Below, one piece after another: positions 6,367 to 37,893 of a stretch of DNA of 37,893 nt. The notes beneath the pieces are model-generated. The model did not search any database. It was not told the origin of the DNA and saw only the letters and a program-made list of their open reading frames with translations. The position numbers and the translations under genes are program-made. Positions within the stretch are counted from its first letter, which is position 1. Every line of letters starts with the position of its first letter. This DNA is from Mesomycoplasma hyorhinis ATCC 17981 (GTDB taxonomy: Bacteria; Bacillota_I; Bacilli_A; Mycoplasmatales; Metamycoplasmataceae). Where the stretch lies: the NCBI RefSeq assembly GCF_000383515.1, contig NZ_KB911492.1, positions 1 through 37,893 on the forward strand. The letters are read 5' to 3'.

Positions 6367-8196
6367 TTATTTGCTTGTAAATAGTTTTTTACCTAATTTT
6401 ATATATTCTTCAATATTTTTATTAAAAACAGCAAAAGCTTGTTGGTAAATCTTATCATCATCTAAATCCACTCCTGCGTCTTTTAAGATCAATGCAGGTC
6501 AATTAGATCCTCCAGCTGATAAGAATTTAGCAATATATTGTTCAAGAGCTTTGGTTCCTTGTTCTTTATATTTTTGAAAAAATACATTAGCTACGATAAA
6601 ACCAATTGCATATTTGTAAACATAATATCCATAATAAAAATGAGGAACAATTACTGAATAAATATTTTGTGGTTGATTAAGTTTGTGTTTTTGTTTATTT
6701 GTTTCATATTGGTTTAAAACATTAACATAAACTTTTTCCATTTCACTATAGGAGTTAATTGGAACCCCTTGATCTACTAGATTGTAAAGTTCGTATTCAA
6801 ATTGTGCTCATTGAGTTTGTTTAATTACTGTTTGGTAAAAATCTGAAATTGCTTCTTCTAAAAGACTAAATTTAACTTTATTGTCTTTAGTATTTGAAAT
6901 TACGTAATCATTTAACATCAATTCGTTAAAAATTGAAGCTATTTCAGCTAAAAAGATAGGATAACTAGCTTGGGCATACGGTAGTGATTTATCAGAATAA
7001 TATGAATGCATAGAATGTCCTAATTCATGAGCTAATGTTGAAACTGAATTAAAACTAAAATCAAAGTTCATTAAAATATATTTTTTATTTACTCCATATG
7101 TTCCACCAATTGAATAAGCGCCACTTACTTTGTTATTCACATTGTAATAATCAACTCATCTTTTTTCAAAGGCTTCTGTAACTACTTTTTTATACTCAGA
7201 ACCCAAAGGTGAAATTGCTTTTAAAACAAAATCTTGTGCTTCTTTTACTGTGTAGTTTTGTTTGATTTTGACCAATGGTACCAAATTATCTCAAGGTCTT
7301 AAATTTTTGTTGAATCTAGCTTTAAAAAAGCTTTTTTTCGCAGCTCTGAACTTATTTACTCCTTTTGCATTTGCTTGCACATTTTTAAAAAGTTTTTCTA
7401 ATAAAGATTTAGAAATTTTATCAGGATAAATGCAATACTCAACTAATGAAGGATAATTTCTAATTTTAGCTTCGGTAGATATTTTTTTAACATGTTGGTA
7501 CAAAAGTGAAGAATAAGTTTCTTTGTGAACTAAATATCCTTGTAAATAATTTTTATAAGCTTGTTCTCTGACATATTCGTCTTTGTTTTTTAACAATTTG
7601 CTATAAGTTGAAATAGTAAGTGGAAGAGATTTTTGTTGCCTTGTTTTTACTGATTTAAATTTAGTTTCAGAGTTGTTTAAAATTGAAAAAGTAGAATCTA
7701 ATTCAATGTTTCCAAAAGAAGTTTTAGATAAATACTCTTCTACTTCATCTGCTAATTTATGTTTTTTAGATTCAATTAAAAAATCAATTTTCTTTTTGTA
7801 AATTTTAACTTCTTCATTATCTTTTCAACTCATAACTTTGTCAATATTTTGAAAAAATAAATTTTCCACCGAACCTAATTGTGATTCAAATTGTGAAATT
7901 TTATAACTAAATTCACCAAAATATTTGTTAAAAAGCGGATCAACTAAATTGGTATTTAATTTATTAGAAATATAATTGTGTAATTTGTTTGTAAAAATAG
8001 AAAAATCTTCAAAAACTTTTGTGTATTCTAAAAAGTTTTTAGCTGAATCAAATTGAGTATCTTTTTTTGCTAATATTTGTTCTTTATAAATATCTATTTG
8101 CTTGAGATGTTCTTCAACTGATTTATTTTCTAGTAAATCTTCTAAATCAAAACGATATTTTAAAGGAATGTCTTCATATTTTTTATATGTTTTCAT
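6367..8196 (-). CDS. pepF: Oligoendopeptidase F, copy 1 (M3 family)
   Basis: This 609-aa cytoplasmic zinc metallopeptidase cleaves short peptides brought in by oligopeptide importers. It begins [21 protein letters not shown], has the zinc site [14 protein letters not shown] with HELGH at residues 390-394, and [14 protein letters not shown] about 25 residues later, which supplies the third (Glu) ligand in M3 peptidases. The tail has [20 protein letters not shown] and SAGGSN, typical of PepF. The reading needs TGA as Trp at several sites. It is a paralogue of the gene at 24234-26060, with HELGH at the same residue number. It lies downstream of the opp block on the same strand but behind a terminator, so it probably has its own promoter. 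Confidence 0.95.
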
Positions 8197-8296: not shown

Positions 8297-11002
8297 TTAA
8301 TTATTTGCTTCTACAGGTAAACCTTTTGTATTATTATTAATATCAAAAGCAAATTGGAGTGAGAAGGTAAATGTACTTCCGACACCTCTTAGTCGAGAAA
8401 TTGTTCAGTAAGTATCTACTTCCATCAATGGTACAATTGGAGCACTTTCTCTTAATATTTTTTCAAATACAGCAATTAATTTAAAGACTTCAATTGAGTT
8501 TCAACCCTCACTTTTTTCTTCAGGAGTAAATACTCCGTTAAAAAAGGCATTGACTCTTTCGTTGTAATCAGTAGTAGATTCTGAAAAAATTGGATTTGTG
8601 ATTACATTACCGTTTATATCTGTTGCATAAACTGGTTTTGAATCTTTGTATTGTTTAATTACTGGTTTAGTTTTTACTTTTTTGGTTTTTGGATCGATTT
8701 CCATTTTTCTTGTAATTAATTCTTTGAATTTAGATAAAAATTTACCTTCAATTTCTAAACGTTTTACTACTTCTTCTTGTTGTTGTTTAGTAAGTGACAT
8801 TCATCAATTTTGATAAGTAAATGAAGAAGAAGGATTGTAAACTAAACCATTGAATTTATTATCTTCTGGGTTAATTTCATCAGCTGTAAAAAATGCAGTT
8901 ATATAACCTTGTGCTGTAGAACCAAAAGTATCAAAGTTTTGTGTTGTAAGATCAAAATCACCACTAATTATTCTTTCTTTGTAAATATTTTCAGGCAGAG
9001 CAACTATATCAACATCAATAAATTTATTAAATGCTCGATTTATTTGATCTTGGATTCCAATTGCAATTCCGGTTTGACTAGCTCCTGAATAAATAAATTC
9101 TAGTTTTATTTGTTTTAAATTTGGATGTTTTGCTTTGAATCTATTCAAGTAAAAATTAGCTGTTTTTACATCATATGAAGGATCTTTACGTGAGACGTTT
9201 TCAAAATTATAACTTTTAGCTAAGTGATCAATAAAAGGTAGTGATTGAATTGGGAATTCTTTTTGTTTTCCATTTTCAACGTATTCAGTTTTAAAAGTTT
9301 GTCCATCAAAAAATGTTTCAAGATTAATTCCACGTTCTGTTTTTGCTTGACCAAAAGCTGTTCAAGTTGTAACTCCAAATGAAGAATCCAACTGTGATAA
9401 TTTAAGCATAGCTTCACGATTAATAGCGTAATAGATAGCTTTTCTTAAATCAGGATCTTGTAAATAACTATTTCCTCTTTTAGAATGATCTAAATTAAAT
9501 TGCAGAGCAATGGTTCCATATCCTTGGGATTTTTCCATGTATTTTCTACTTGCTAACTCAGATCAAAATCTCTTTTGAAAAACTGGTGAAATTTGTGAAA
9601 AAGCAATATAACCATCAGAGAATAAGTTAGATACTAATTCAGGTTGATCAGCAAAAAAGACTTTGACTTCATCAGGAACAGTTTTATCAGCTGAATAATA
9701 AGAAGCTCTTTTAGTTAAAAGCATATTTCCTTGTGGACCTAGTTTTAAATCTTTAATATCAAAAGGTCCATTTCAAAGAAATTTAGAAAGTTCTGATCCT
9801 AAGTCATCTCTGTTTTTTAAATCATATTCAACAAATTTTCTATTAATTGGTAAAAGTAAAGAAGAAGTTATTACTCTAGCGTATAAATCGGTTAATGACT
9901 TTGGTGCTGAATCTTCAAATTCAATTCTTAAATCATACTCATCAGCTGCAAAAGCATCATATTTTGCAGTAAGTTCTGGACCATCAAATTCTTGTAATGG
10001 ATCTAAAAATGGGTTTTTAGTTAGTGTTTTTGTAACTTGTTGGCCTTTATCATTTAAAAAGGAAATTTGTGTTGAATTAACAGAAAATGAAGGATTTAAT
10101 GCTTTATTGTCTTTTAAAATTGTTCTTATTTCTTGATTGGAGAATTCATTGAAAATTCTTCCTGTATAAAGACCTATTGATCTTGCAATAGTTTGCATTT
10201 TTTTAACTAATTCTTCATCACCTTTGTTTTCAGATTGAAAAATTGGTTGGGATTGATCCTCGACAATTTGTCCTTCTTCATTTTTTATGAATCTTCTTCT
10301 ACCAAAAGGATTTTTATAAATAATTCCAAATTGTTTTAAGTAATCATTTTGCACATCTCTCATTGCTCTGACATTTTTAATATCCATATTTAAGAGCTCA
10401 TTTAATCTAGTTGAAGCTGTGTTGGTATCTACGATGTATAAAATAGTATCAATAAAATCTTGTGCTTTTACTGGATCACCATTTGATCATTTAGAAGCAC
10501 CTTTGTTTAAATGTGATAAAAAAGTAACGTACTTATTTTCAGAGTTTTGAATTCCAATAAATGAAGGGGAATTTTGCCCAGAAGGAGCTAAAACTCCTGT
10601 GGTAACTCCAAAATTAGCAATTGGATAACTACTTCCTTGATCAGTAATAGCGTCTCTATTTTTTAAAATTTTTGAACCCACTGTTTCTGGAACACTACTT
10701 TTGTAGTTTTCAAAAGTAATAGTTGGTAATTTTAAAATATTTCCAATTGCGGTGTTAGCAGCTGGTGCTGTTTTTACTAAACCTTCAACTAATGATGGCA
10801 TTATTTTAAATGTAGCATTAGATTTTATATAGTTTAAAGTGTTAATAGGAGGTATAGAAATTCCAAAAGATGCTAATTCTTTCTTTGCATCAGAAGAGTT
10901 AAAGTTATTAGTTTCACTAGCAGGAGAACAAGCAAGAGCTACCAAAGGCGAAAAAAGCAAAGAAGATGATAGTAATAATTTAATTTTGTTTGATTTTTTC
11001 AT
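8297..11002 (-). CDS. OppA-like oligopeptide-binding lipoprotein
   Basis: This 901-aa lipoprotein is the likely extracellular substrate-binding component of the Opp importer encoded upstream. The N-terminus is a signal peptide of basic residues, a hydrophobic stretch and the lipobox VALAC with Cys25, followed by a Ser/Asn-rich linker. The body resembles the SBP_bac_5 family only weakly, but LKLEFIYSG-like strands, IDVDIVALPENIYKERIISGDFDLTTQN and YNPSSSFTYQN fit its C-terminal lobe. At 901 aa it is larger than most OppA proteins, as is usual in mycoplasmas. The start is preceded by AAGGAA, and only 14 bases separate it from the PDxFFG stop, so the genes are co-transcribed. All pieces are in one frame with TGA as Trp. 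Confidence 0.82.
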
Positions 11003-24233: not shown

Positions 24234-26060
24234 CTAATTTTTAAATAGTTTATTACCTAATTTTATATATTTTTCAACGTTATCTTCTAGTATACTAAAA
24301 GCTTGTTGATAAATTTTGGAATCTTCTAAATCTATTCCTGCATCTTTTAAAACTAAAGCAGGTCAATTAGATCCTCCAGCTGATAAGAATTTATCAATGT
24401 AATTTTGCAATTGTGCTTTTCCTTCTTTTTTGTACCTTTGAAAAAACACATTAGCAACGATATATCCTATAGCATATTTATATACATAATAACCATAATA
24501 AAAATGAGGAACAATTACTGAGTAAATATTGCTTTTATCACCTAATTTTACTTTGTTAGCTTCCATTTCATATTTATTCACTACATCAACGTAAACCTTT
24601 TCGATTTCTGTGTAAGAATTAACTGGTTGCCCTTTATCAATTAAATTGTACATTTCATATTCAAATTCAGCCCACTTTGTTTGTTTAATTACTACTTGAT
24701 AAAACTCTAAAATTGAATCTTCTAGTAATTTAAACTTAGTAAAGTCATTTTCTGATTGTTCAAAAGCTTTATCAACTAACATTAATTCATTAAAAATTGA
24801 AGCAATTTCAGCTAAAAAAATTGGATAACTAGCTAATGAATAAGGCAATCTTGTATCTGAAAAATATGAATGCATTGAATGTCCTAATTCATGAGCTAAA
24901 GTAGAAACTGAATTAAAAGTAAAATCATAATTCATTAAAATGTATTTTTTATCTAAACCATAAGAAGCACCAATTGAATAAGCTCCGCTTCTTTTATTGG
25001 CAACATTGTTGTAATCAACTCAACAATCTTTAAAAGCCTTTTTAATCATATCTGTGTATTCTGATCCCAAAGGCTTTAAAGATTCAAGAACTAAGTTTTG
25101 AGCTTCTTCAATGCTATAATTTTCTTTGATTTTAACCAACGAAACTTTATTATCTCAATCTTTCATTGGCTTATTAAACTTAAATTTAAAAAATTTGTTA
25201 CGAGCTTTTTTAAATTTATTGTAAATATTTGTATGATTTTGCACATTTTTAAATAAATTTTCTAACAAAGAAACACTAATCCGATCGGAAAATAAACAAT
25301 ATTCAATTAAAGAGTTAAAGTTTCTAGCTTTAGCATCCACGGATTGTTTTTTAATGTGTTGATATAATAAAGAAGAATAAGTTTCTTTATGCATTAAATA
25401 TGCATCTAAGTAATTATTGTAAGCTTGCTTTCTAATATCTTCATCTTTATTTTTCAAAAGTGTTGAAAGTGTAGCAATTGTTAAAGAATGCTTCTTATTT
25501 GAAGCAGAAATTACATCTTTGAACTTTGTTTCTGAATTATTTAAAACTGCAAAAGTTGAACTTAAAGAAACTTGACCAAAAGAAGTTTTAGTTAAATATT
25601 CTTCAACATCATCACTTAATCTATGTGCTTCAAAATCAAGATATTTTTGAATTTCTAATCTGTAATTTTTAACTCTTGGATCATTTTTATATTGATTAAT
25701 TAAATCTTTCTTAGCAAAAAAAAGATTTTGAATTGAACCCAAAGATGAATAAAAATTACTCATTTTAAACTTGTATTGACCAAAAAGTTTATTAGTTTCT
25801 GCATCAACTAAATTTGTATTTAGTTTATTTGAAATGTAATTTAAAACTTTATTATTATAAATTGCGAATTCTTCTGAAAGCTTTTGATAGGCTAAAAAAT
25901 TATCAACTGTATCAAATTGACTATCTTTTTTGGCAATTAGTTGTGAAATATACTCATCCATACCTGCTAATTTGTCTTCAATAGTACGACCTTCTAAAAG
26001 GAAGTCTAAATCAAATCTGTACTGTTTTGGAATGTCTGAATATTTTCTATAAGTTTTCAT
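24234..26060 (-). CDS. pepF: Oligoendopeptidase F, copy 2 (M3 family)
   Basis: This 608-aa zinc metallopeptidase is a paralogue of the protein at 6367-8196. It begins [21 protein letters not shown], with the zinc motif [14 protein letters not shown] (HELGH at residues 390-394) and [16 protein letters not shown]. The ending [20 protein letters not shown]...SAGGSN is almost identical to copy 1. It is encoded immediately before oppB on the same strand. Imported peptides would be hydrolysed in the cytoplasm by this enzyme. The upstream region carries a weak RBS (AGGA) 9 bases before ATG and faces efp divergently. Confidence 0.95.
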
Positions 26061-26815: not shown

Positions 26816-27127
26816 ATGAATTTTGTAGTTGTAAATTATTCTTTAAATCAAGAATATTTAGTATATAAAAAAGCTTTTAGTTCACAAGTTAAAAAGGCGC
26901 TAAACAAACTAGATAGCTTCACAATCAAGCATTTGGATGTCAACATTAACCTCAAGTCAACAAATTTGACTCTCAAACTTTATATCAACACCAAAGCTAA
27001 CTTTAAATATGCAACTACTGTTAATAAAATTTTAAGCAAAACAAGAGAGGCAATAAAGTTATTAATTAATACTGAGCCTGAAAATATTTATTTAATATTT
27101 AACAAAGAAATGAGAAAAAATGCATAA
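26816..27127 (+). CDS. Small Asp23/Gls24-like protein
   Basis: This 103-aa protein has no membrane segment or signal. The central alternating pattern (LDVNINLKSTNLTLKLYINT, then a helix KILSKTREAIKLLINT, then a final strand ENIYLIFN) resembles the strand-helix-strand core of the Asp23/Gls24 (DUF322) envelope-stress family. The match is by pattern only and the family assignment is tentative. It starts 2 bases after efp and overlaps tkt by 8 bases. Confidence 0.6.
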   Translation: MNFVVVNYSLNQEYLVYKKAFSSQVKKALNKLDSFTIKHLDVNINLKSTNLTLKLYINTKANFKYATTVNKILSKTREAIKLLINTEPENIYLIFNKEMRKNA

Positions 27128-28967
27128 AAATATAGAAGAATTAGCAATTAATACTTTAAAAATGAACGGAGTTGCTGCTGTTAATCAAGCAAATTCAGGG
27201 CATCCTGGAATTGTTTTAAGTGCTGCTAATATTGTTCATACTTTATTTACTAGACATATGAATTTTGATCCACAAAATCCACAATGAATTAATAGAGATC
27301 GTTTTATTTTATCAGTTGGTCACGGATCTGCTTTATTATATTCACTATTAAGAGTAATTGGATTGATCTCTAAAGAAGATTTAAAACAATTTCGTCAATT
27401 AAACTCTAAAACTCCAGGGCATCCAGAATACAGACACACAAAAGGAGTAGAAGCAACAACAGGACCATTAGGTCAAGGAATTGCAATCGCTACTGGAGTT
27501 GCAATTGCTCAAGCTCATTTAGAAGTAAAATTTAAAGAAATTGATCACTACACTTATGTTTTATGTGGAGATGGTGATATTCAAGAAGGTGTAGCAAATG
27601 AAGCATTTTCATTAGCTGGACACTTAAGATTAAACAAATTAATTGTTTTATATGATTCAAATAATATTCAATTAGATACAAGAGTAGAAGCAACTTTTAC
27701 TGAAGATGTAAAAGAAAAAATGACTGCATTAGGATTTAATTATATCCTTGTGGAAAAAAATGAAGTTGATGCTATTGATCAAGCAATTACTAAAGCAAAA
27801 CAATCTAACTTACCTTCATTTATTGAAGTAAAAACAATAATTGGTGAAGGAGCTCCAAAAGCAAATACCTCAGAAGTGCACGGTGCACCATTAGGTAAAG
27901 ATATTGAAGTTTTAAAGCAAAATCTAAATTGAACTTATGATGAATTCGAACTACCTCAAGAAGTAAAAAAATTCTATGAAGATACATTGATTAAAAGATC
28001 TCAAAATGCTTTTAATAGCTTCAAAGTTTCCAAAGAACTCCAAAATTGAATTTTAGCTTCTGATAAAGAGCAAAAAATTGAAATTGATATTAAAGAAAAC
28101 ATTGCTACTAGAGCAAGTTCAGGTGCTGTTATAGAGCATTTAAACAAAAATCTTGAATCTTGAATAGGTGGTAGTGCTGATTTAAGTAGCTCAACTAAAG
28201 CAAAAGGTGCAGATGGAGATTTTTCTATAAAAAATAGAAAAGGAAGAAATATTCTATTTGGAGTTAGAGAGTTTGCAATGGCAGCAATTGCAAATGGACT
28301 TGCTCTTCACTCTCACTTTAAGCCTTTTGTTTCTACTTTCTTTGTTTTTGCTGATTATTTAAAACCAGCATTAAGACTTTCTTCTTTAATGCAGCTTCCT
28401 GTAACTTATATCTTTACTCACGATTCAGTTCAAGTTGGTGAAGATGGTCCAACACATGAACCAATTGAACAACTTGCTATGTTAAGATCTGTTCCTAATT
28501 TAAATGTTTTACGTCCTGCTGATGAAAAAGAAGTAAAAGCTTCATATGAAATTGCAATAAATTCTAAACTAACACCAACTGTTATTGTTTTAACTAGACA
28601 AAATATTACTTCTTTAGCAAACACAAATCAAGAAGAATTTAAAAAAGGAGCTTACCTTGTAAGAAAATCTAAATCTAAATTTGCAGTTATAGCTACTGGT
28701 TCAGAATTAGCTATTGCACAAGAAATTGCTAATGAATTAGATTTTAATTTAATTTCTTTATCTAATTGACAAAACACACCTATTTGAGATGCTTCTAAAG
28801 CGGTTTCTATTGAATTGGCTTCAACTTTTGGCTGAACAAAACACGCTAGTTTAAACATAGGAATTGATACATTTGGAATTTCTGCTCCAGTAAAAGATAT
28901 ACTAAAACAAATTGGCTTTGAAAAAGAAGCAATTATTAAAAAAATTAAAACTTTTGTAAACAAATAG
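27120..28967 (+). CDS. tkt: Transketolase
   Basis: This 615-aa thiamine diphosphate enzyme of the non-oxidative pentose phosphate pathway transfers two-carbon units between sugar phosphates. Visible features are [11 protein letters not shown] near residue 26, [13 protein letters not shown], the GATGPLGQG-type loop ([10 protein letters not shown]), the thiamine-binding motif GDGDIQEG with downstream NN, and the pyrimidine-domain sequence [17 protein letters not shown] followed by [20 protein letters not shown]. The C-terminus has [14 protein letters not shown]. Slightly shorter than bacterial enzymes (about 660 aa). Several TGA codons are Trp. The start at 27120 overlaps the small upstream gene. 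Confidence 0.96.
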
Positions 28968-29011: not shown

Positions 29012-29049
29012 AGATCCCCTTTTTTTTAGAAAAATAGAAAAGGGGATCT
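29012..29049. terminator. Bidirectional terminator between tkt and lanKC-like gene
   Basis: AGATCCCCTTTT (29012-29023) pairs with AAAAGGGGATCT (29038-29049); this is one of the most GC-rich stretches in the local sequence. The TAG stop of the minus-strand lanKC-like gene (29048-29050) overlaps the stem, so it serves both genes. Confidence 0.88.
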
Positions 29050-30675
29050 ATCATTCTTTCAACATTTTTTTATTTTGTGAATTTTTATTTTTATTAAAAT
29101 CATTCAAAAGATAAAAACAATAAAAAATTAAACTTGATATTTTTAATTTATAGATATTTTTATAATGAACTTTTTTGTTTTCTGTATTTTCAAACTCTAA
29201 ATCATTAATAACAGAAAAAATCAATTTATGTTTTCAACTTTCGAATTTAAACTTAATTTTTGGATTTTTAGCTAAAATATTTTGCACTTTATTGATTATA
29301 TAATTTTCTGAAAACATTAAAAATGCTTCTTTTTTATAGCATTTTTGTTTAATTTTTTCTAATTTTTGTACAAAATTAACTTTTTCTGGATTTTTGTATA
29401 AAAGTAAATTAAGTGATTGAAAAATATAAGATTTTAAACCAAAAAACTTTGTAAATTTTCAAAACAACAACAAATCCAAAGAAAATAAATATTTATCTTT
29501 TTTAAAGTAAAAATGATTAAAAAAATGTTGTAATAGTACAATTGCTAACTTAAAATAATCTTTTTGAAAATGAGTTAATTTATTTGATTTATCAATTTGG
29601 AATAAATCTGTATCTAAAATAACATTATTTTTTAAATCAAATTTCTTTTTAAAATCTTCATTAGTGAAAAAAGAAAAATCATAATCTATAAAGTGAAATT
29701 TATTCTTGTTTGTTATAATGAAATTTCCTAAATTAATATCCTTTAAAATAATGTTATTTTTATGATGCAAATCAATTGTTTTTACCAAATTTATAATTAA
29801 ATTAAACAAAAATTTAGAATAATGTTCGTGATTAGTTAATGAATAAATTAGATTAGAATTTAATACATTTCCTAAATCTCTACCATTTATAAACTCTTTT
29901 ACAGTATAAAAAAGTTGTTTTCAAAAAATGATTCTATAAAAATAGATGGATTAATAATTTTTCAAAACTTTTGTTCACGTTTTCTTAAACTCACCAAAGC
30001 AACTTTTGAATCAAAATAAGTATAAATGTGAGTTTGTTTAACTGTTAGTGTTAGTAATTTATTTTCATTTTGTTTAGCACCTAAAAAAATAAATCCAGAA
30101 GTATTTTGATATATGTTATAGGGTAATCTATATTGTGAAAGTTTAGGTGAATCTTTTGGTTTTTCTGCAAAAACATCCTTTACAAATGAAGGTAAATAAA
30201 AATATGATTTACTTCTATCTGGTTCTTTTTTTCTGAGTAATGGGATTAACAAAATATGGTCTTTTGCTATGATTTGTTCCAAATCTATAAAAAATAATAG
30301 AATTTTTGTACTGCTTGTCTACTGAAATATTTAAGCCTTTATATTTTTTTAATAGTTGATACAAATTTTCGATATGTAGTTTAAAATCTTCTTCATTTTT
30401 TGGATAAATTGTAATTAATTTACCGTACATTTGCAAATCTAAACTTTTTGAAGAATAAATCTTGGCTAATTTATGGTTTTTAAATGCTTAAATTCTAAAA
30501 AATTATTTACACAATATGTGTAAATAATTTTTATAACTTTGTAGTAATCCCTTATTCTGGGAGCTATATGAATTTTTCAACCTTGAAATAGTAGCGGGTA
30601 ATTATGAAAAATTAAAAACTTAAAATTTTCATTTTTTGATACATTATAATTAACATTTGATGAAGAGACAACCAT
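29048..30675 (-). pseudogene. LanKC-like lanthipeptide synthetase (lyase + kinase), three frameshifts
   Basis: The conceptual product of about 540 aa matches the N-terminal part of class III/IV lanthipeptide synthetases. In order: QGWKIHIAP (residues 31-39), YGKLITIYP, KNSIIFYRFG and PDRSKSYFYLPSFV of the phosphothreonine/serine lyase region, then a kinase domain with TVKQ (ATP Lys), LRKREQKFW (helix C Glu), LKDINLGNFII (catalytic Asp and Asn) and HFIDYDFS (metal Asp). About 150 residues follow, without a recognisable LanC cyclase; full LanKC proteins are roughly 800-900 aa. The frame changes three times: at T5 30477-30481, T7 30226-30232 and A6 29908-29913 (plus-strand bases). Apart from these there is no stop other than the final TAG. 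The ATG lies 16 bases after a small Cys-peptide gene. It could be decayed, phase-off, frameshift-expressed or mis-sequenced. Confidence 0.75.
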
Positions 30676-30691: not shown

Positions 30692-30862
30692 TTATTTTTT
30701 ATAAATAATTATTGTGCATTGATTTGTGTCAATTTTTTCAAGTTCATTTTGTTTTGCTGCTAAATTCATTTCTTTATAACTAGTGTTTAATTTATTAAAA
30801 TCTAAAGAATCCAAATTATTTAGTAAATTTGCGTTGAGTAAAATAGTTGATAAATTGTTCAT
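30692..30862 (-). CDS. Candidate RiPP precursor peptide (56 aa, one Cys)
   Basis: This 56-aa peptide directly precedes the LanKC-like gene on the same strand, with 16 bases between. It starts MNNLSTILL and contains an amphipathic segment LLNNLDSLDFNKL (residues 13-25), resembling the helical Leu-rich leaders of class III/IV lanthipeptides. The only Cys (Cys49) is near the end in KIDTNQCTIIIYKK, with Thr46 three residues before and Thr50 just after. A Thr46-Cys49 thioether ring would be sterically ordinary. No double-Gly or other obvious protease site is present. A GAAAG-type RBS and TATAAT lie upstream. It is too small to prove by sequence alone, but the position and composition favour a synthetase substrate. 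Confidence 0.65.
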   Translation of the reverse strand: MNNLSTILLNANLLNNLDSLDFNKLNTSYKEMNLAAKQNELEKIDTNQCTIIIYKK

Positions 30863-30884
30863 ATATACTTTCTATGTAAATTGA

Positions 30885-30890
30885 ATTATA
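30885..30890 (-). promoter_or_regulatory. -10 box of the peptide/synthetase operon
   Basis: A perfect TATAAT on the minus strand lies 22 bases upstream of the precursor ATG, leaving room for a short leader that contains AGAAAG as ribosome binding site. No convincing -35 box is visible, as is common in mycoplasmas. Confidence 0.55.
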
Positions 30891-31023: not shown

Positions 31024-31860
31024 TTATTTCATCCATCCCAGTCTGGATTTAAAATTATGTTTTTTGTTTAAATCTAAAACTAATGGAGTCAAGGTTACTA
31101 AACAAAAAGTATAAACAGGAAGTGTAATTGTAGATTTAAGAATTATTGGAGTTAAATAAAAAAAGAAATACTGTGAAATATATCTATCTTTTCCTGTTCT
31201 GTTTAAAAATCTATTGTAGTATCTAACAAATGCAATTGGATGTCAAAAATATCTAAAGACAACAAAAATAAATACTAAAATAACAAAAACTACAAATGCC
31301 AATCTTCATTTTCTATTATGTGTTTTATGATATAGAAACAATAATGTTCCACCAACAAAAAAAGCAAATGAATAAATCACAGCTAAAAGACCAATAATTA
31401 ATTGTTTATTAAAAATCCCTTTTCAGGATTTAGAAGTTCTTTGAATTTCTGAATCAGGCATTTTGAGGTAGTAAATTAAAACTACAGATGCAACTATAAA
31501 AGTAAGGACTGTTGGAAGAAGAAGTCAAATATCCCTTTTAGAATTTAACAAAAAGAGAAATCCTGATGCAATAATAGCAATAAGAGGAGGAATAATTCCA
31601 TACTCATATGCTCAAAGATGAATTTGTCCTTTAATTAATGCGTTCATAATATCAAATATAAAAGCAACAACAGCACCTTTAAATGTACCTAAAATAATTC
31701 CTAAAAATAAATAGAAAGGAATTTCAAAAGCTACATTAAACCTAGAAGGTAAATGTACTTTTAAAATAAACGTTAACGCTGAAAATATTGCTAATAAAAA
31801 ACCACTAATTACAATATCAAATGTTGAAAATAGGAAAAAAGTTTTTCAATTAATTTTCAT
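31024..31860 (-). CDS. ECF transporter substrate-binding (S) component
   Basis: This 278-aa integral membrane protein begins MKINWKTFFLFSTFDIVISG and has several hydrophobic spans. The stretch FEIPFYLFLGIILGTFKGAVVAFIFD (described here by its key parts: a Pro-containing span, then G-x-x-x-G-x-x-K-G and a final Asp) is typical of vitamin S components, where it forms the substrate pocket and energy-coupling contact. The C-terminal part (about residues 130-278) has more membrane spans and a positively charged tail ending GWMK. The family resembles FolT/RibU-like components, but the vitamin cannot be told. It must use EcfA/A'/T encoded elsewhere. AGAAGG precedes ATG. The frame needs many TGA(Trp) codons, so standard-code tools miss it. 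Confidence 0.78.
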
Positions 31861-33993: not shown

Positions 33994-34025
33994 AAAAAAA
34001 CTTACTAAAAATAGTAAGTTTTTAT
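33994..34025. terminator. Bidirectional terminator
   Basis: AAAAACTTACT pairs with AGTAAGTTTTT (34013-34023) across a short loop, followed by T-rich sequence. The minus-strand ABC gene ends inside it (TAA at 34022-34024). Confidence 0.85.
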
Positions 34026-35650
34026 TTATCTAAATAAATTATATAATCAAATGCTTGTTCTCTTTTGTTGTCATTATGATGTGAAATATAAATTAATGTA
34101 AGGTCTTGATCATTTAATAATAAATTTAGAGCAATTTCCAAATTTTCTTTATCAATGTTAGATAATCCTTCATCTATTATTAACACATCTTTTTTAAAAT
34201 ATAAATTTCTTGCTAACACTATTCTTTGCATTTGACCAGTTGAGACATCATTATCATCTTCTTGTCCTAAGATTTTATTTTTATCTATTGTTTGCAAATT
34301 TAATTTTTCAATTAGGTTATTTAGCTTGTTTTTATCAGAATTTTCTTCAAATAAAACAATATTATTTTCTATATTTGCTTCAAGTAAAAGCGAGTTATTT
34401 GCTAGATAGTTAAAGTGTTTGTTTATTCATTTAAAATCAATCTCTTTAACTTCATATTTAGCATTTAGTAAAACATTTCCATCATAGTTTTTCTCAAGAC
34501 CTAAAAGAATTCTGGCAAGCGTAAACTTACCTGAACCATTTGAACCTTTTATAATGTATTTTTTAGCTGGATATATAATTAAATTTTTATTGTTATACAA
34601 TGTTTTATCCTTTAATTTTAAAGAGAGATTTTTAATTAAAATGCTTGAAAATACTTCATTTTCTAAGTTAAATGCACTTACTGTAAGTGTTAAATTAAAT
34701 GGTGCAATATTTTGTGTATCTTGAATTTCTTTTTTGGCCTTTTTTACTTGAAGAAATTTTAAAATATCTTCAATTGTTTCATTTAGATGATCAAAAAAGT
34801 TATCTAACAAAGAACCAACAAATGCAATAATTGAAACTGATTTAATCAACTCAAATACATCATTTTTATGAACTAAACCAAAATAAACTATTATCACACC
34901 ACTTACAAAAAGTTTAAAAACTAAATTTAAATTTTCTGAAATTAAAGAAAAAAACTTAGAAGTTTTTAAATAATTATTGTAAACATTTAAATTTGCATCT
35001 AGTTTTTTTGCAAATAATTTATTAAGTTTTTCTTTTTTATTTAGAGTATACAACGCTGGTAAATAAGAAATGATACCTGTTATATTTTCATTAAATTTAT
35101 TTCAAGATTCTGTTTTTGCAATAAATGTTTTTTTTAATTTTGGCTTTATAAATAAAGAAAAATTAAAAAATAATACTAACAAAGCTACTATAGTAACTCC
35201 AAGAATTCACTTGGTATAAAACGCAAAAATTAAAATTGCAATTATATATAAAAGATTTTTCAAAATTTCAATTAATGCTAAATAATATTTTTCAATTCTT
35301 TCTCCAATGTTGTTTTTAATTTGTGAATAATAATAACCTTCAGAATTTTTGTTATATTCACTTAAATTAACCTTATCAAAAACCTTAATTGTTTTAGAAA
35401 CAAGTTTGAGTTTTAAAATATTTATAAAACCTGTAAAAACAGCATTATGATAACCTGTAAAAACAGCAGAAACTATAAAAGATAGAATTAGAATAAGTGA
35501 AGTAATAACAAGTTTTTGATAGTTATGTTCTTCTAGAAATGTAAACAAATAGTAAGGAGCAACTGTAATAACAAAAGATGTAATTAAATATTGTAAAACA
35601 TAAAAAATATTTCAAATATTAAATAAAAATAATTTTGATTTTGTACTCAT
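34022..35650 (-). CDS. ABC half-transporter 2 (membrane + ATPase), altered Walker A
   Basis: This 542-aa protein has an N-terminal membrane domain of about six spans (ALYTLN and long helices to residue ~300) and a C-terminal nucleotide-binding domain. Walker A is GSNGSGKFTL (residues 369-378): the Lys is kept, but the next Ser/Thr, which binds Mg, is Phe. The signature is VSTGQMQRIVLARN instead of LSGGQ, Walker B is VLIIDEGLSNID with the catalytic Glu, and the switch His is in YISHH. Domain order is that of exporters of the lantibiotic/bacteriocin or lipid type, without an N-terminal peptidase. It starts 12 bases after the preceding half-transporter with AGAAGGA as RBS, so both form one operon and probably a heterodimer. 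Confidence 0.87.
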
Positions 35651-35662
35651 TTTTCCTTCTTT

Positions 35663-37249
35663 TTATAGCCTAATTACCTCACCAAATTGCTCTAATATTT
35701 GTTCATTAAAATGATGACTAATAGCAATAATTGTTTTATCTTGTTGATTTAAAATGTTAGATCAAATAAGATTACTAAACTCTTTTTCTATATTATCTAG
35801 CGCTTCGTCTAAACACCAAATATCAAAGTTTCCATATTTTAATCTAGCTAAAATTATTCTTTGTTTTTCTCCTTCAGATAAAGAATCAGAAGTTACTTCA
35901 GTATCAAGTGATAATTTTTTAATTTTAAATTCATCTATTAGTGATTCCACTCTTTCTAGGTCTGGATTGTCATCTCACATAACTATGTTATTCAATAAAA
36001 TATCATTAAAAATTGTGTTTTGATTGTCAATTAATCCAATGTTTTTTAATGTATTTTTAGGATTTAATTCTTTTGTATCAACTTCATTATTTATCAAAAT
36101 TGTACCTTCGTAATTTGTTTCTAAATTAGCTATTAACTTTAAAAGTGTTGATTCTCCACTTCCTGAAGCTCCAACTATTGCATATTTTTTATTTTGCATA
36201 ATTTCAAGATTTAAATTTTGAAAAATGAAGTCATTTTCATTACTTTTATATGATAAATTATTTAATTTTATTGACTTAATTTTATCTATGTTTTCAACTT
36301 TAAAACTTGGTTGTTCGTGTGTTTCTAATATTTTTTTCAATGTTGGACCATATGTCATTAAAGGAAAAATTGAATTAAATAAAAGAGTAAAAGAAAAACT
36401 AATAATTATTAAATAAGAAAGCAAAAGAATAAAGCTTGATTTTCCTATGAAATTATTATAAATTAGTAAAGCAATTTCAACTATACTAATTCCAACAAAT
36501 AAAACTGAAATAAAATTTCCAAATGAATTTGCTCAATCTGTTTTTAGATTAAATTTAAATTTATTTGCATATATATTTTCAGTTTTTTTAAATATTAAAT
36601 TATTAAAAATATTAACTTTATTAAAGAAGTAAAATATAGAAAATAATGAAAAAGTTTTAACCTGTTTTTGAGCATATTCTTCATATTTTTGCATTAATAT
36701 TTGGAATTTATATTGAAATCTTGGAATAATTATTATAAAAAAGGCAAGAATTAAAAACTGTGAAAAAATTATTGTTAAAAACATTATTCAAGATCATTGA
36801 CTTAAAACAAATATAAAAACTAATGGTATTGTAAACGAAGAAATAAATTTAAATAAATAATCATGGAAAATCTCCAAAAGAAGCATTGTTGAATCTAAGT
36901 ATTCATTAAACAATGCAACGGTTTTATTTCTTTGTTTGCTAATTTGAGAAAAACTCTGATTAGATAAATTATCTATTATTTTTTCTTGAAGTAATTTATA
37001 TGTTTTTCTAGTAACAGATATCTTAAAAGCAGTTAAAATCCACTGAATTATTATAGATAAAACAAGTGAAAATAAACAAATTAATAATCAAATTAAAAAC
37101 TCATCAAATTTAATTTCATTTAAAAAATAATCAACAATATATTTGTATAAATATAAATTTAATGATAAAAATGCTACAAAGATATTTTGTAGCACAAAGA
37201 TAAAAATATTTTTGGTTTTATCAAATGATAAAATTTTTAAAATGCTCAT
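35663..37249 (-). CDS. ABC half-transporter 1 (membrane + ATPase), Walker A Lys replaced
   Basis: This 528-aa exporter-type subunit has membrane spans in the first 270 residues, for example FLTIIFSQFLILAFFIIII, and an ATPase domain. Walker A reads GASGSGESTL (residues 360-369): the invariant Lys is Glu366 (codon GAA), which should abolish ordinary ATP binding. The signature is LSEGEKQRIILARL, Walker B IWCLDEALDNIE and the switch His lies in AISHH. The frame is open throughout with TGA as Trp, so the gene is intact apart from this substitution. It is preceded by a 57-codon ORF whose stop is 10 bases before this ATG, and it leads into the second half-transporter. Confidence 0.87.
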
Positions 37250-37259
37250 AAATATCTTT

Positions 37260-37433
37260 CTATAAAATTTTCATTATATATTTTTGTACAAAAAATGTTA
37301 AAGTGATTTTTAAAATTTTTTGTTTTATCTTATCAATATTATCTTTGAGAACAATATTTTCCAAATTATCTACTTTATCTAAAAGTGAAATAAAAAAATT
37401 AGATAATTTATTATCATATAATGAAATTTTCAT
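37260..37433 (-). CDS. 57-aa peptide gene heading the ABC operon
   Basis: This 57-aa ORF starts MKISLYDNKLSNFF and has one of the best ribosome binding sites in the window (AAGGAG, 9 bases before ATG). It encodes a Lys/Ile/Leu-rich, probably helical peptide with the central NLENIVLKDNIDKIKQKI and no Cys, no Trp and no signal peptide. The TAG is 10 bases before the ABC start. A role as substrate, immunity or leader peptide of the transporter pair is possible; nothing in the sequence decides between these. It is intact and probably translated. Confidence 0.55.
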   Translation of the reverse strand: MKISLYDNKLSNFFISLLDKVDNLENIVLKDNIDKIKQKILKITLTFFVQKYIMKIL

Positions 37434-37523: not shown

Positions 37524-37893
37524 AAAGATTCTTTTACACTCACTTGACAACAGTGTAAGGTTGGAGAGTTGTTTGAATTAGATGGAGGAGGATTTGTTTC
37601 TAAATATGAAATTCAAAATAATCCTGGCAAGTATCCTGTTTATTCATCGCAAACCACCAATAATGGAACAATGGGTTATATAAGTTCATATAAATATGAT
37701 TTAGAATGTTTAACTTGAACCACCAGAGATTATGCTGGTGTAGTGTTTTATAGAAACGAAAAATTCAGTGTTTCTAATTCTGGTTTATTAATTTTTAAAA
37801 GAAACATAATTTACAATTATCGATATTTTTTATTTGTTTTTCAAATGGCAGATATTCAAAAATCAATGACTGCAGGGAACATTCCACAATTTA
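37524..37893 (+). pseudogene. hsdS: Type I restriction specificity subunit HsdS, 5'-truncated and cut by window end
   Basis: The frame from 37524 encodes FTLTWQQCKVGELFELD followed by GKYPVYSSQTTNNGTMG, LTWTTRDYAGVVFYR and SVSNSGLLIFKR, then MADIQKSMTAGNIPQF. This is the usual start of an HsdS target-recognition domain (TDD-W-x-x-R-K-L-G-E-like). There is an in-frame TAA immediately upstream (37521-37523) and no start codon before GEL, so the normal 15-20 leading residues are missing. The break lies next to the T18 tract. It may be a silent specificity cassette that recombines with an expressed hsdS elsewhere, or a remnant. TGA codons are Trp. The 3' end is outside the window. Confidence 0.75.

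What the first reader, a model, noticed from the sequence alone, without database searches (positions are those of the whole stretch)
30692..30862. Precursor-like peptide with leader helix and a Thr-x-x-Cys end
The peptide has LLNNLDSLDFNKL as a Leu-rich amphipathic leader and KIDTNQCTIIIYKK as tail, with Thr46 and Cys49 spaced for a small lanthionine-type ring. Only one Cys exists, which differs from most known class III substrates. It has its own TATAAT and RBS.
Basis: partly seen in the sequence, partly recalled or inferred. Interest (0 to 1): 0.8.

Follow-up and report, generated by a model that had tools for sequence, protein, structure and literature searches.

The report
Lanthipeptide precursor beside broken mycoplasma synthetase
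The small gene encodes the starting peptide of a ring-containing natural product (a class III-type lanthipeptide) that many mycoplasmas appear able to make, but in this genome the enzyme that would make the ring is wrecked, so this copy is probably a leftover.

Summary
The ORF is real as described: 56 codons, window 30862-30692 (-), one Cys, Thr46-x-x-Cys49. The window is a mollicute using TGA=Trp. The ORF lies 17 bp upstream of a class III lanthionine synthetase (lanKC) gene. That gene is a pseudogene here: it is split over shifting frames, and its 3' end and the two exporter genes that follow lanKC in the relative G013 are deleted. The genome has no other lanKC.

In the same order, 25 of 320 genomes carry the lyase domain, usually lanKC followed by two ABC genes. 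In 16 of the 25, the window's among them, a 34-68 aa peptide just upstream ends in Thr-x-x-Cys. In nine relatives picked without regard to this motif, 16 of 16 Cys have Thr/Ser at position -3 (shuffles: mean 2.6, maximum 9). Among 91 small window ORFs this peptide ranks first in similarity to those precursors. A profile of the relatives does not find it (E>1).

Best reading: the orphaned precursor of a compact class III-type lanthipeptide system with [T/S]xxC cores, whose peptide would form a single four-residue methyllanthionine ring. A single Cys is normal in this family, the promoter claim is not above chance, and the pathway is dead in this assembly.

The parts
30692..30862 (-). Precursor peptide 1 (56 aa): leader about residues 1-44, core IDTNQCTIIIYKK with Thr46-x-x-Cys49
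   Evidence: ORF; adjacency to lanKC and TxxC shared with relatives; rank 1 of 91 small ORFs
30868..30890 (-). TATAAT (30890-30885) and TAGAAAG Shine-Dalgarno-like stretch (30874-30868)
   Evidence: read directly; promoter-like sites not above shuffled DNA
29048..30675 (-). lanKC pseudogene: lyase domain split over two frames, then kinase part in further frames; stops at the residue equivalent to 558 of the 712-residue G013 protein
   Evidence: PF25816 RamC_N in two frames; tblastn with G013 LanKC shows the frame changes; only LanKC-like stretch in the genome
29000..29053 (.). Deletion junction: the end of lanKC and its two ABC genes (3.7 kb in G013) are missing between here and the transketolase gene
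   Evidence: window 29054 aligns to L030 10946 and window 28999 to L030 14686
37260..37433 (-). Second precursor-like peptide (57 aa) with a strong Shine-Dalgarno (AAAGGAG); its G013 homologue ends RFTILCVIIQQ, the window copy has no Cys
   Evidence: 49% identity, E 2.8e-8 to G013; sequences; rank 2 of 91
35663..37249 (-). ABC half-transporter 1 (528 aa), directly downstream of peptide 2; Walker A reads GASGSGEST (G013: GESGTGKST)
   Evidence: Pfam ABC_tran 2.6e-23; Walker A; dN/dS 0.20
34022..35650 (-). ABC half-transporter 2 (542 aa); Walker A reads GSNGSGKFT (G013: GSNGSGKST)
   Evidence: Pfam ABC_tran 1.5e-20
31024..31860 (-). ECF-type transporter S-component-like gene, conserved neighbour upstream of the cluster (79% identical in G013)
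27120..28967 (+). Transketolase, conserved neighbour beyond the cluster; fixes the deletion end point

Best explanation
The peptide is the precursor (LanA) of a class III-type lanthipeptide cluster. In intact relatives LanKC would bind the helical leader, its kinase domain would phosphorylate the core Thr, its lyase domain would eliminate phosphate to give dehydrobutyrine, and its cyclase domain would add the Cys three residues on, closing a four-residue methyllanthionine ring (one or two rings per peptide). The two ABC half-transporters would export the product. In the window's genome the cluster has decayed: lanKC is frameshifted and has lost its 3' end, its exporter pair is deleted, and peptide 2 has lost its Cys, so peptide 1 is now an orphan that is probably not modified. 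Shown: gene order, homology, the [T/S]xxC rule and the breaks. Inferred: the chemistry, export, product activity and lack of modification in vivo.
For: RamC_N lyase domain is found next to the peptide and in 25 of 320 genomes of the order. Relatives have lanKC plus two ABC genes. A [T/S]xxC-ending peptide lies just upstream of lanKC in 16 of those 25 genomes, the window's among them. Background test: a T..C-ending small ORF sits upstream of 8 of 14 lanKC against 8 of 214 other large ORFs, p = 2e-7. In 9 peptides from the unfiltered list 16 of 16 Cys have S/T at -3, with 0 of 20000 shuffles as high. P0001 ranks first of 91 window ORFs. The LanKC profile hits ThurKC 8SAP at 1.9e-85, and all top 20 fold matches are class III synthetases or curvocidin CuvL. 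The kinase Lys, Glu, catalytic Asp, Asn and metal-binding Asp are invariant or nearly so. Decay.
Against: A profile of the relatives' precursors does not find this peptide at E <= 1, so sequence kinship rests on pairwise scores, position and the TxxC end. The closest relative, G013, has no copy of peptide 1. The mollicute LanKC proteins score far below NCBI's cut-off for class III LanKC (174 of 575 bits), and their cyclase part is short and only weakly recognised (LANC_like E 0.006). No product mass is known.
Confidence: 0.85

Rival explanations
1. The cluster is live: the frame changes are sequencing or assembly errors, or an intact lanKC lies in an assembly gap, and the peptide is modified in this strain.
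For: The synthetase pieces still show dN/dS of 0.07-0.16 against G013, so decay is recent. The contig ends inside an hsdS gene beside the cluster, and G013 carries a second lanKC 5' fragment.
Against: Besides several frame changes, 3.7 kb holding the end of lanKC and both exporter genes is missing with both flanks aligned. No other LanKC-like stretch exists in a 98.7% complete genome. All other window genes checked are open. Peptide 2 has lost its Cys and both remaining ABC genes have altered Walker A motifs.
Confidence: 0.08
2. The peptide is a chance ORF in AT-rich DNA that happens to lie before the synthetase remnant.
For: The profile search misses it, no homologue in the closest relative, promoter-like signal not above chance.
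Against: First of 91 small ORFs and 0 of 2000 shuffles; only Cys in a TxxC at the C-terminus, exactly as in the relatives; right place and strand, 17 bp before lanKC; 66 points and shared TxxCTII stretch with the G042 precursor.
Confidence: 0.05
3. The peptides next to lanKC are unmodified secreted peptides or pheromones, and LanKC acts on something else.
For: Two ABC genes follow lanKC in most relatives. No modified product has been measured.
Against: All 16 Cys of the unselected set sit exactly three residues after Thr/Ser, and no other spacing exceeds 3 of 16. This is expected of thioether rings and has no reason in unmodified peptides.
Confidence: 0.03

Closest known systems
ThurKC/ThurA class III lanthipeptide system (Bacillus thuringiensis; PDB 8SAM/8SAO/8SAP; PMC10604976)
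   Same: Best sequence and fold match of the mollicute LanKC. Same order of lyase, kinase and metal-independent cyclase; amphipathic leader helix in the precursor.
   Different: ThurKC chains are about 860-900 aa, the mollicute enzymes 596-740 aa with a reduced cyclase part. ThurA cores have many Ser/Thr and a labionin; these have a bare [T/S]xxC.
Streptococcal class III systems SalKC/SalA and PneKC/PneA (PDB 9UGQ, 8W7A and others)
   Same: Same enzyme class, next best fold matches. A Streptococcus mitis LanKC locus fetched here has a TxxC-ending small ORF upstream (VATYKCSVHKG).
   Different: Walker et al. (PMC7268733) give Sx2Sx3C as the core of the S. pneumoniae family III 3; the mollicute cores lack it.
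LanKC of goat-gut Clostridia MAGs (RGIG2532, RGIG2248; L063, L064)
   Same: Among the best non-mollicute matches over most of the enzyme's length (28% over residues 35-650); upstream peptide MKEQVIELNLLPKEVDNEEDIVITFMCPVTGS ends in ITxxC.
   Different: Much shorter leader; found in MAG contigs only; not in the tree because the motif filter missed them.

Membership tests
[quoted passage not shown]
   Relatives up to 136 bits against a cut-off of 27; window pieces 50 and 36 bits in two frames
[quoted passage not shown]
   Pkinase E down to 2.8e-11 in relatives; D330, N335, D348 invariant and K230, E251 in at least 90%; fold hits to the CurKC kinase domain
Class III lanthionine synthetase (LanKC) | C-terminal LanC-like cyclase without zinc ligands | tested here: inconclusive
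   No conserved Cys or His in the C-terminal part, fitting class III; but the domain is short, LANC_like is only E 0.006 and much of it has low pLDDT. In the window this part is deleted
Class III lanthionine synthetase (LanKC) | NCBIfam NF038151 curated cut-off (575 bits) | tested here: not met
   G013 LanKC 174 bits; still better than class IV NF038150 at 101 bits
Class III lanthipeptide precursor (LanA) | Short ORF with C-terminal Cys encoded beside lanKC | tested here: met
   Window 30862-30692, 17 bp before lanKC; same in 15 other genomes of the order
Class III lanthipeptide precursor (LanA) | LxLQ-type motif in the leader | tested here: inconclusive
   Not in the window peptide (LNNLDSLDFNKL), but G157/G158 have EILDLQI
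Class III lanthipeptide precursor (LanA) | Core S/T-x2-S/T-x3-5-C (labionin or lanthionine) motif | tested here: not met
   Window core has TxxC only; relatives have [T/S]xxC as the constant feature
Class III lanthipeptide precursor (LanA) | (Methyl)lanthionine or labionin in the product | not testable with these tools
   Needs mass spectrometry

The most novel reading that the evidence does not exclude
Mycoplasmas and relatives carry an undescribed, patchy family of class III-type lanthipeptide clusters with shortened LanKC enzymes and minimal cores in which every Cys closes a four-residue ring with a Thr or Ser three residues before it. These clusters are gained and lost, and this genome shows one being lost beside hsdS-linked rearrangement.
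Probability: 0.7. Interest if true: 0.75.

Novelty: new variant of a known kind. Interest (0 to 1): 0.62.

Why it matters
Mycoplasmas have among the smallest genomes of free-growing cells and are not known as makers of modified peptides; the papers searched here describe no lanthipeptide from them. A compact lanKC-ABC-ABC cluster with its precursor, with the lyase domain in about 8% of the genomes searched in the order, would mean that such organisms keep a costly peptide-modifying pathway, perhaps for competition or signalling on host surfaces. The small enzymes and one-ring cores would also be a minimal system for studying metal-independent thioether formation. The window's copy is a case of recent loss: the enzyme is broken while the precursor is still open.

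Tried and rejected
Profile A2 of the relatives' precursors against 135 genomes: finds 11 genomes strongly but not the window; kept as evidence against. Direct search with the window peptide in its genus: only weak chance-like hits, E 0.015-0.11, which on reading were pieces of other frames. The piece at 37433-37260 was first taken for a LanKC end fragment; BLAST gave nothing consistent and the G013 homologue showed it to be a second precursor. Alignment A3 held one row typed with three residues left out (G002); it is not used as evidence. The darobactin-family hit of the window peptide (E 0.035, 14 of 45 bits) is taken as chance. The tree groups the mollicute enzymes together (95/79, just short of starred) apart from the sampled others, but with long branches. 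No base was put back in any broken gene.

Full report
What was checked. The window as a whole reads cleanly only with TGA as Trp, so it is a mollicute; it is a whole contig (C8) of an 0.81 Mb, 24-contig genome that is 98.7% complete. The peptide occurs once in that genome. A TATAAT lies at 30890-30885 and a TAGAAAG at 30874-30868, but promoter-like sites there are as common as in shuffled DNA.

Neighbours. Seventeen bases downstream starts a gene for a class III lanthionine synthetase (LanKC). Its lyase domain (PF25816 RamC_N) is split over two frames, 36 and 50 bits. With the 712-residue LanKC of the same-genus genome G013 as guide, the window DNA follows the protein in pieces that change frame several times from residue 33 to 558 and then stops. 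The missing part is a deletion: window 29054 aligns to G013 locus position 10946 and window 28999 to 14686, so 3.7 kb holding the end of lanKC and two ABC transporter genes is gone, and the transketolase gene follows. A LanKC profile finds no other copy in the genome. The pieces still show dN/dS of about 0.07-0.16 against G013, so the loss is recent.

Relatives. RamC_N occurs in 19 of 135 genomes of the family and 25 of 320 of the order. Where lanKC is intact it encodes about 600-740 residues and is usually followed by two ABC half-transporters of 520-560 residues. Listing all small ORFs upstream of lanKC, without any filter on sequence, showed peptides with the same kind of end: KITFFC, YTIFC, LTILC, ITIFC, ITIVC, ITLIC, LTTKC, ITIIC, TTYVC. 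A second pass and the loci outside the family added G086 (KITFYC), G157/G158 (MTINEILDLQINTEKETPVFASEAIIQITIICKA, which also has an ILDLQ stretch like the LxLQ leader motif of class III given in PMC7268733), G233 (TLICHTRIC) and G283 (NTSKCNVNTVVC). With the window this makes 16 of the 25 genomes. G003 and G022 have less certain candidates (NTNAC without a clear start codon; TRGC before a broken lanKC).

Statistics. A T..C-ending small ORF lies upstream of 8 of 14 lanKC genes and of 8 of 214 other large ORFs in the same loci (Fisher p = 2e-7). In the nine distinct peptides from the unfiltered list, 16 of 16 Cys have Thr or Ser exactly three residues before; 0 of 20000 shuffles of the tails come near (mean 2.6, maximum 9), and no other offset exceeds 3 of 16. 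Seven of those Cys are second cysteines that played no part in spotting the peptides. Against these relatives and G013 peptide 2, the window peptide has the highest total alignment score of 91 small window ORFs (382; peptide 2 379; the next 281), and 0 of 2000 shuffles reach its best score, 66 with the G042 precursor. A profile of the relatives misses it at E <= 1, so the kinship is real but thin in sequence.

A second precursor. Window 37433-37260 (-) encodes a 57-aa peptide with a strong Shine-Dalgarno, directly before an ABC pair (37249-34022). G013 has the homologue in the same place (49%, E 2.8e-8), and that copy ends RFTILCVIIQQ, a TxxC; the window copy has no Cys. Both window ABC proteins have altered Walker A motifs where G013 has GESGTGKST and GSNGSGKST, and their dN/dS of 0.19-0.20 is above that of the neighbours tested (0.02-0.14). 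This ABC pair is distinct from the deleted one (43-51% identical to it). The whole system therefore looks as if it is decaying in this species.

What the enzyme is. A profile of 16 mollicute LanKC proteins matches ThurKC, a class III synthetase of Bacillus thuringiensis, at 1.9e-85. The AlphaFold2 model of the G013 enzyme (pLDDT 70.5) has as its best 20 PDB matches class III synthetases (ThurKC, SalKC, PneKC, the CurKC kinase) and curvocidin CuvL. Kinase residues K230, E251, D330, N335 and D348 are invariant or nearly so. No Cys or His is conserved in the short C-terminal part, which fits the metal-independent class III cyclase described in PMC10604976. The enzymes fall well below NCBI's LanKC cut-off (174 of 575 bits for G013), so they are class III-type but divergent and short. 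In a tree with other bacteria the mollicute enzymes group together (95/79), with long branches.

How it most likely works (inferred from the class). LanKC binds the leader, phosphorylates the core Thr/Ser, eliminates phosphate, and joins the resulting dehydro residue to the Cys three positions on. This would give one ring (window peptide 1, G002, G013, G086, G094, G157) or two rings. The ABC pair would export it. The leader protease is not in the cluster; each of seven checked family genomes has one full-length Mbov_0121-type ABC transporter elsewhere, a family described as having a peptidase domain, which is a candidate only. Activity, whether antibacterial, surfactant or signal, is unknown.

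Novelty. Class III lanthipeptides are known. What appears new is their presence across mycoplasmas and relatives, the compact enzyme and the bare [T/S]xxC core. Searches of the held papers for mycoplasma with lanthipeptide, lantibiotic, LanKC, or Mollicutes with RiPP clusters found no description; the library holds open papers only. None of 13 precursors scanned matches an NCBIfam family above its cut-off. TxxC-ending small ORFs were also seen beside lanKC in goat-gut Clostridia and Streptococcus mitis loci, so the core type reaches beyond mollicutes.

Verdict. The single Cys is ordinary for this family, the promoter is unproven, and the pathway is broken in this genome.

Noticed in passing
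window 37433-37260 (-): Second precursor-like peptide upstream of an ABC pair; its G013 homologue has a TxxC end, the window copy has lost the Cys.
   Followed up: yes
window 37569-37893; L030 7903-8814; L047 1183-2436: Type I restriction specificity (hsdS-like) genes or fragments sit beside the lanKC loci in both genomes, and G013 carries a second, broken lanKC 5' end near one of them; suggests hsdS-linked inversion or duplication moving the cluster's 5' end.
   Followed up: partly
window 35663-37249 and 34022-35650: Both ABC proteins have substitutions in the Walker A motif compared with G013 (Lys replaced in one, Ser in the other).
   Followed up: partly
L028 (G002) around 7460-7510: The G002 precursor has a strong Shine-Dalgarno but no ATG at the expected distance; it is open from an internal TTG.
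   Followed up: no
L063, L064, L125, L141: TxxC-ending small ORFs also lie upstream of LanKC genes in goat-gut Clostridia and Streptococcus mitis-type contigs.
   Followed up: partly
window 6367-8196 and 24234-26060: Two paralogous oligoendopeptidase F-like genes flank an oligopeptide ABC transporter operon in this window.
   Followed up: no
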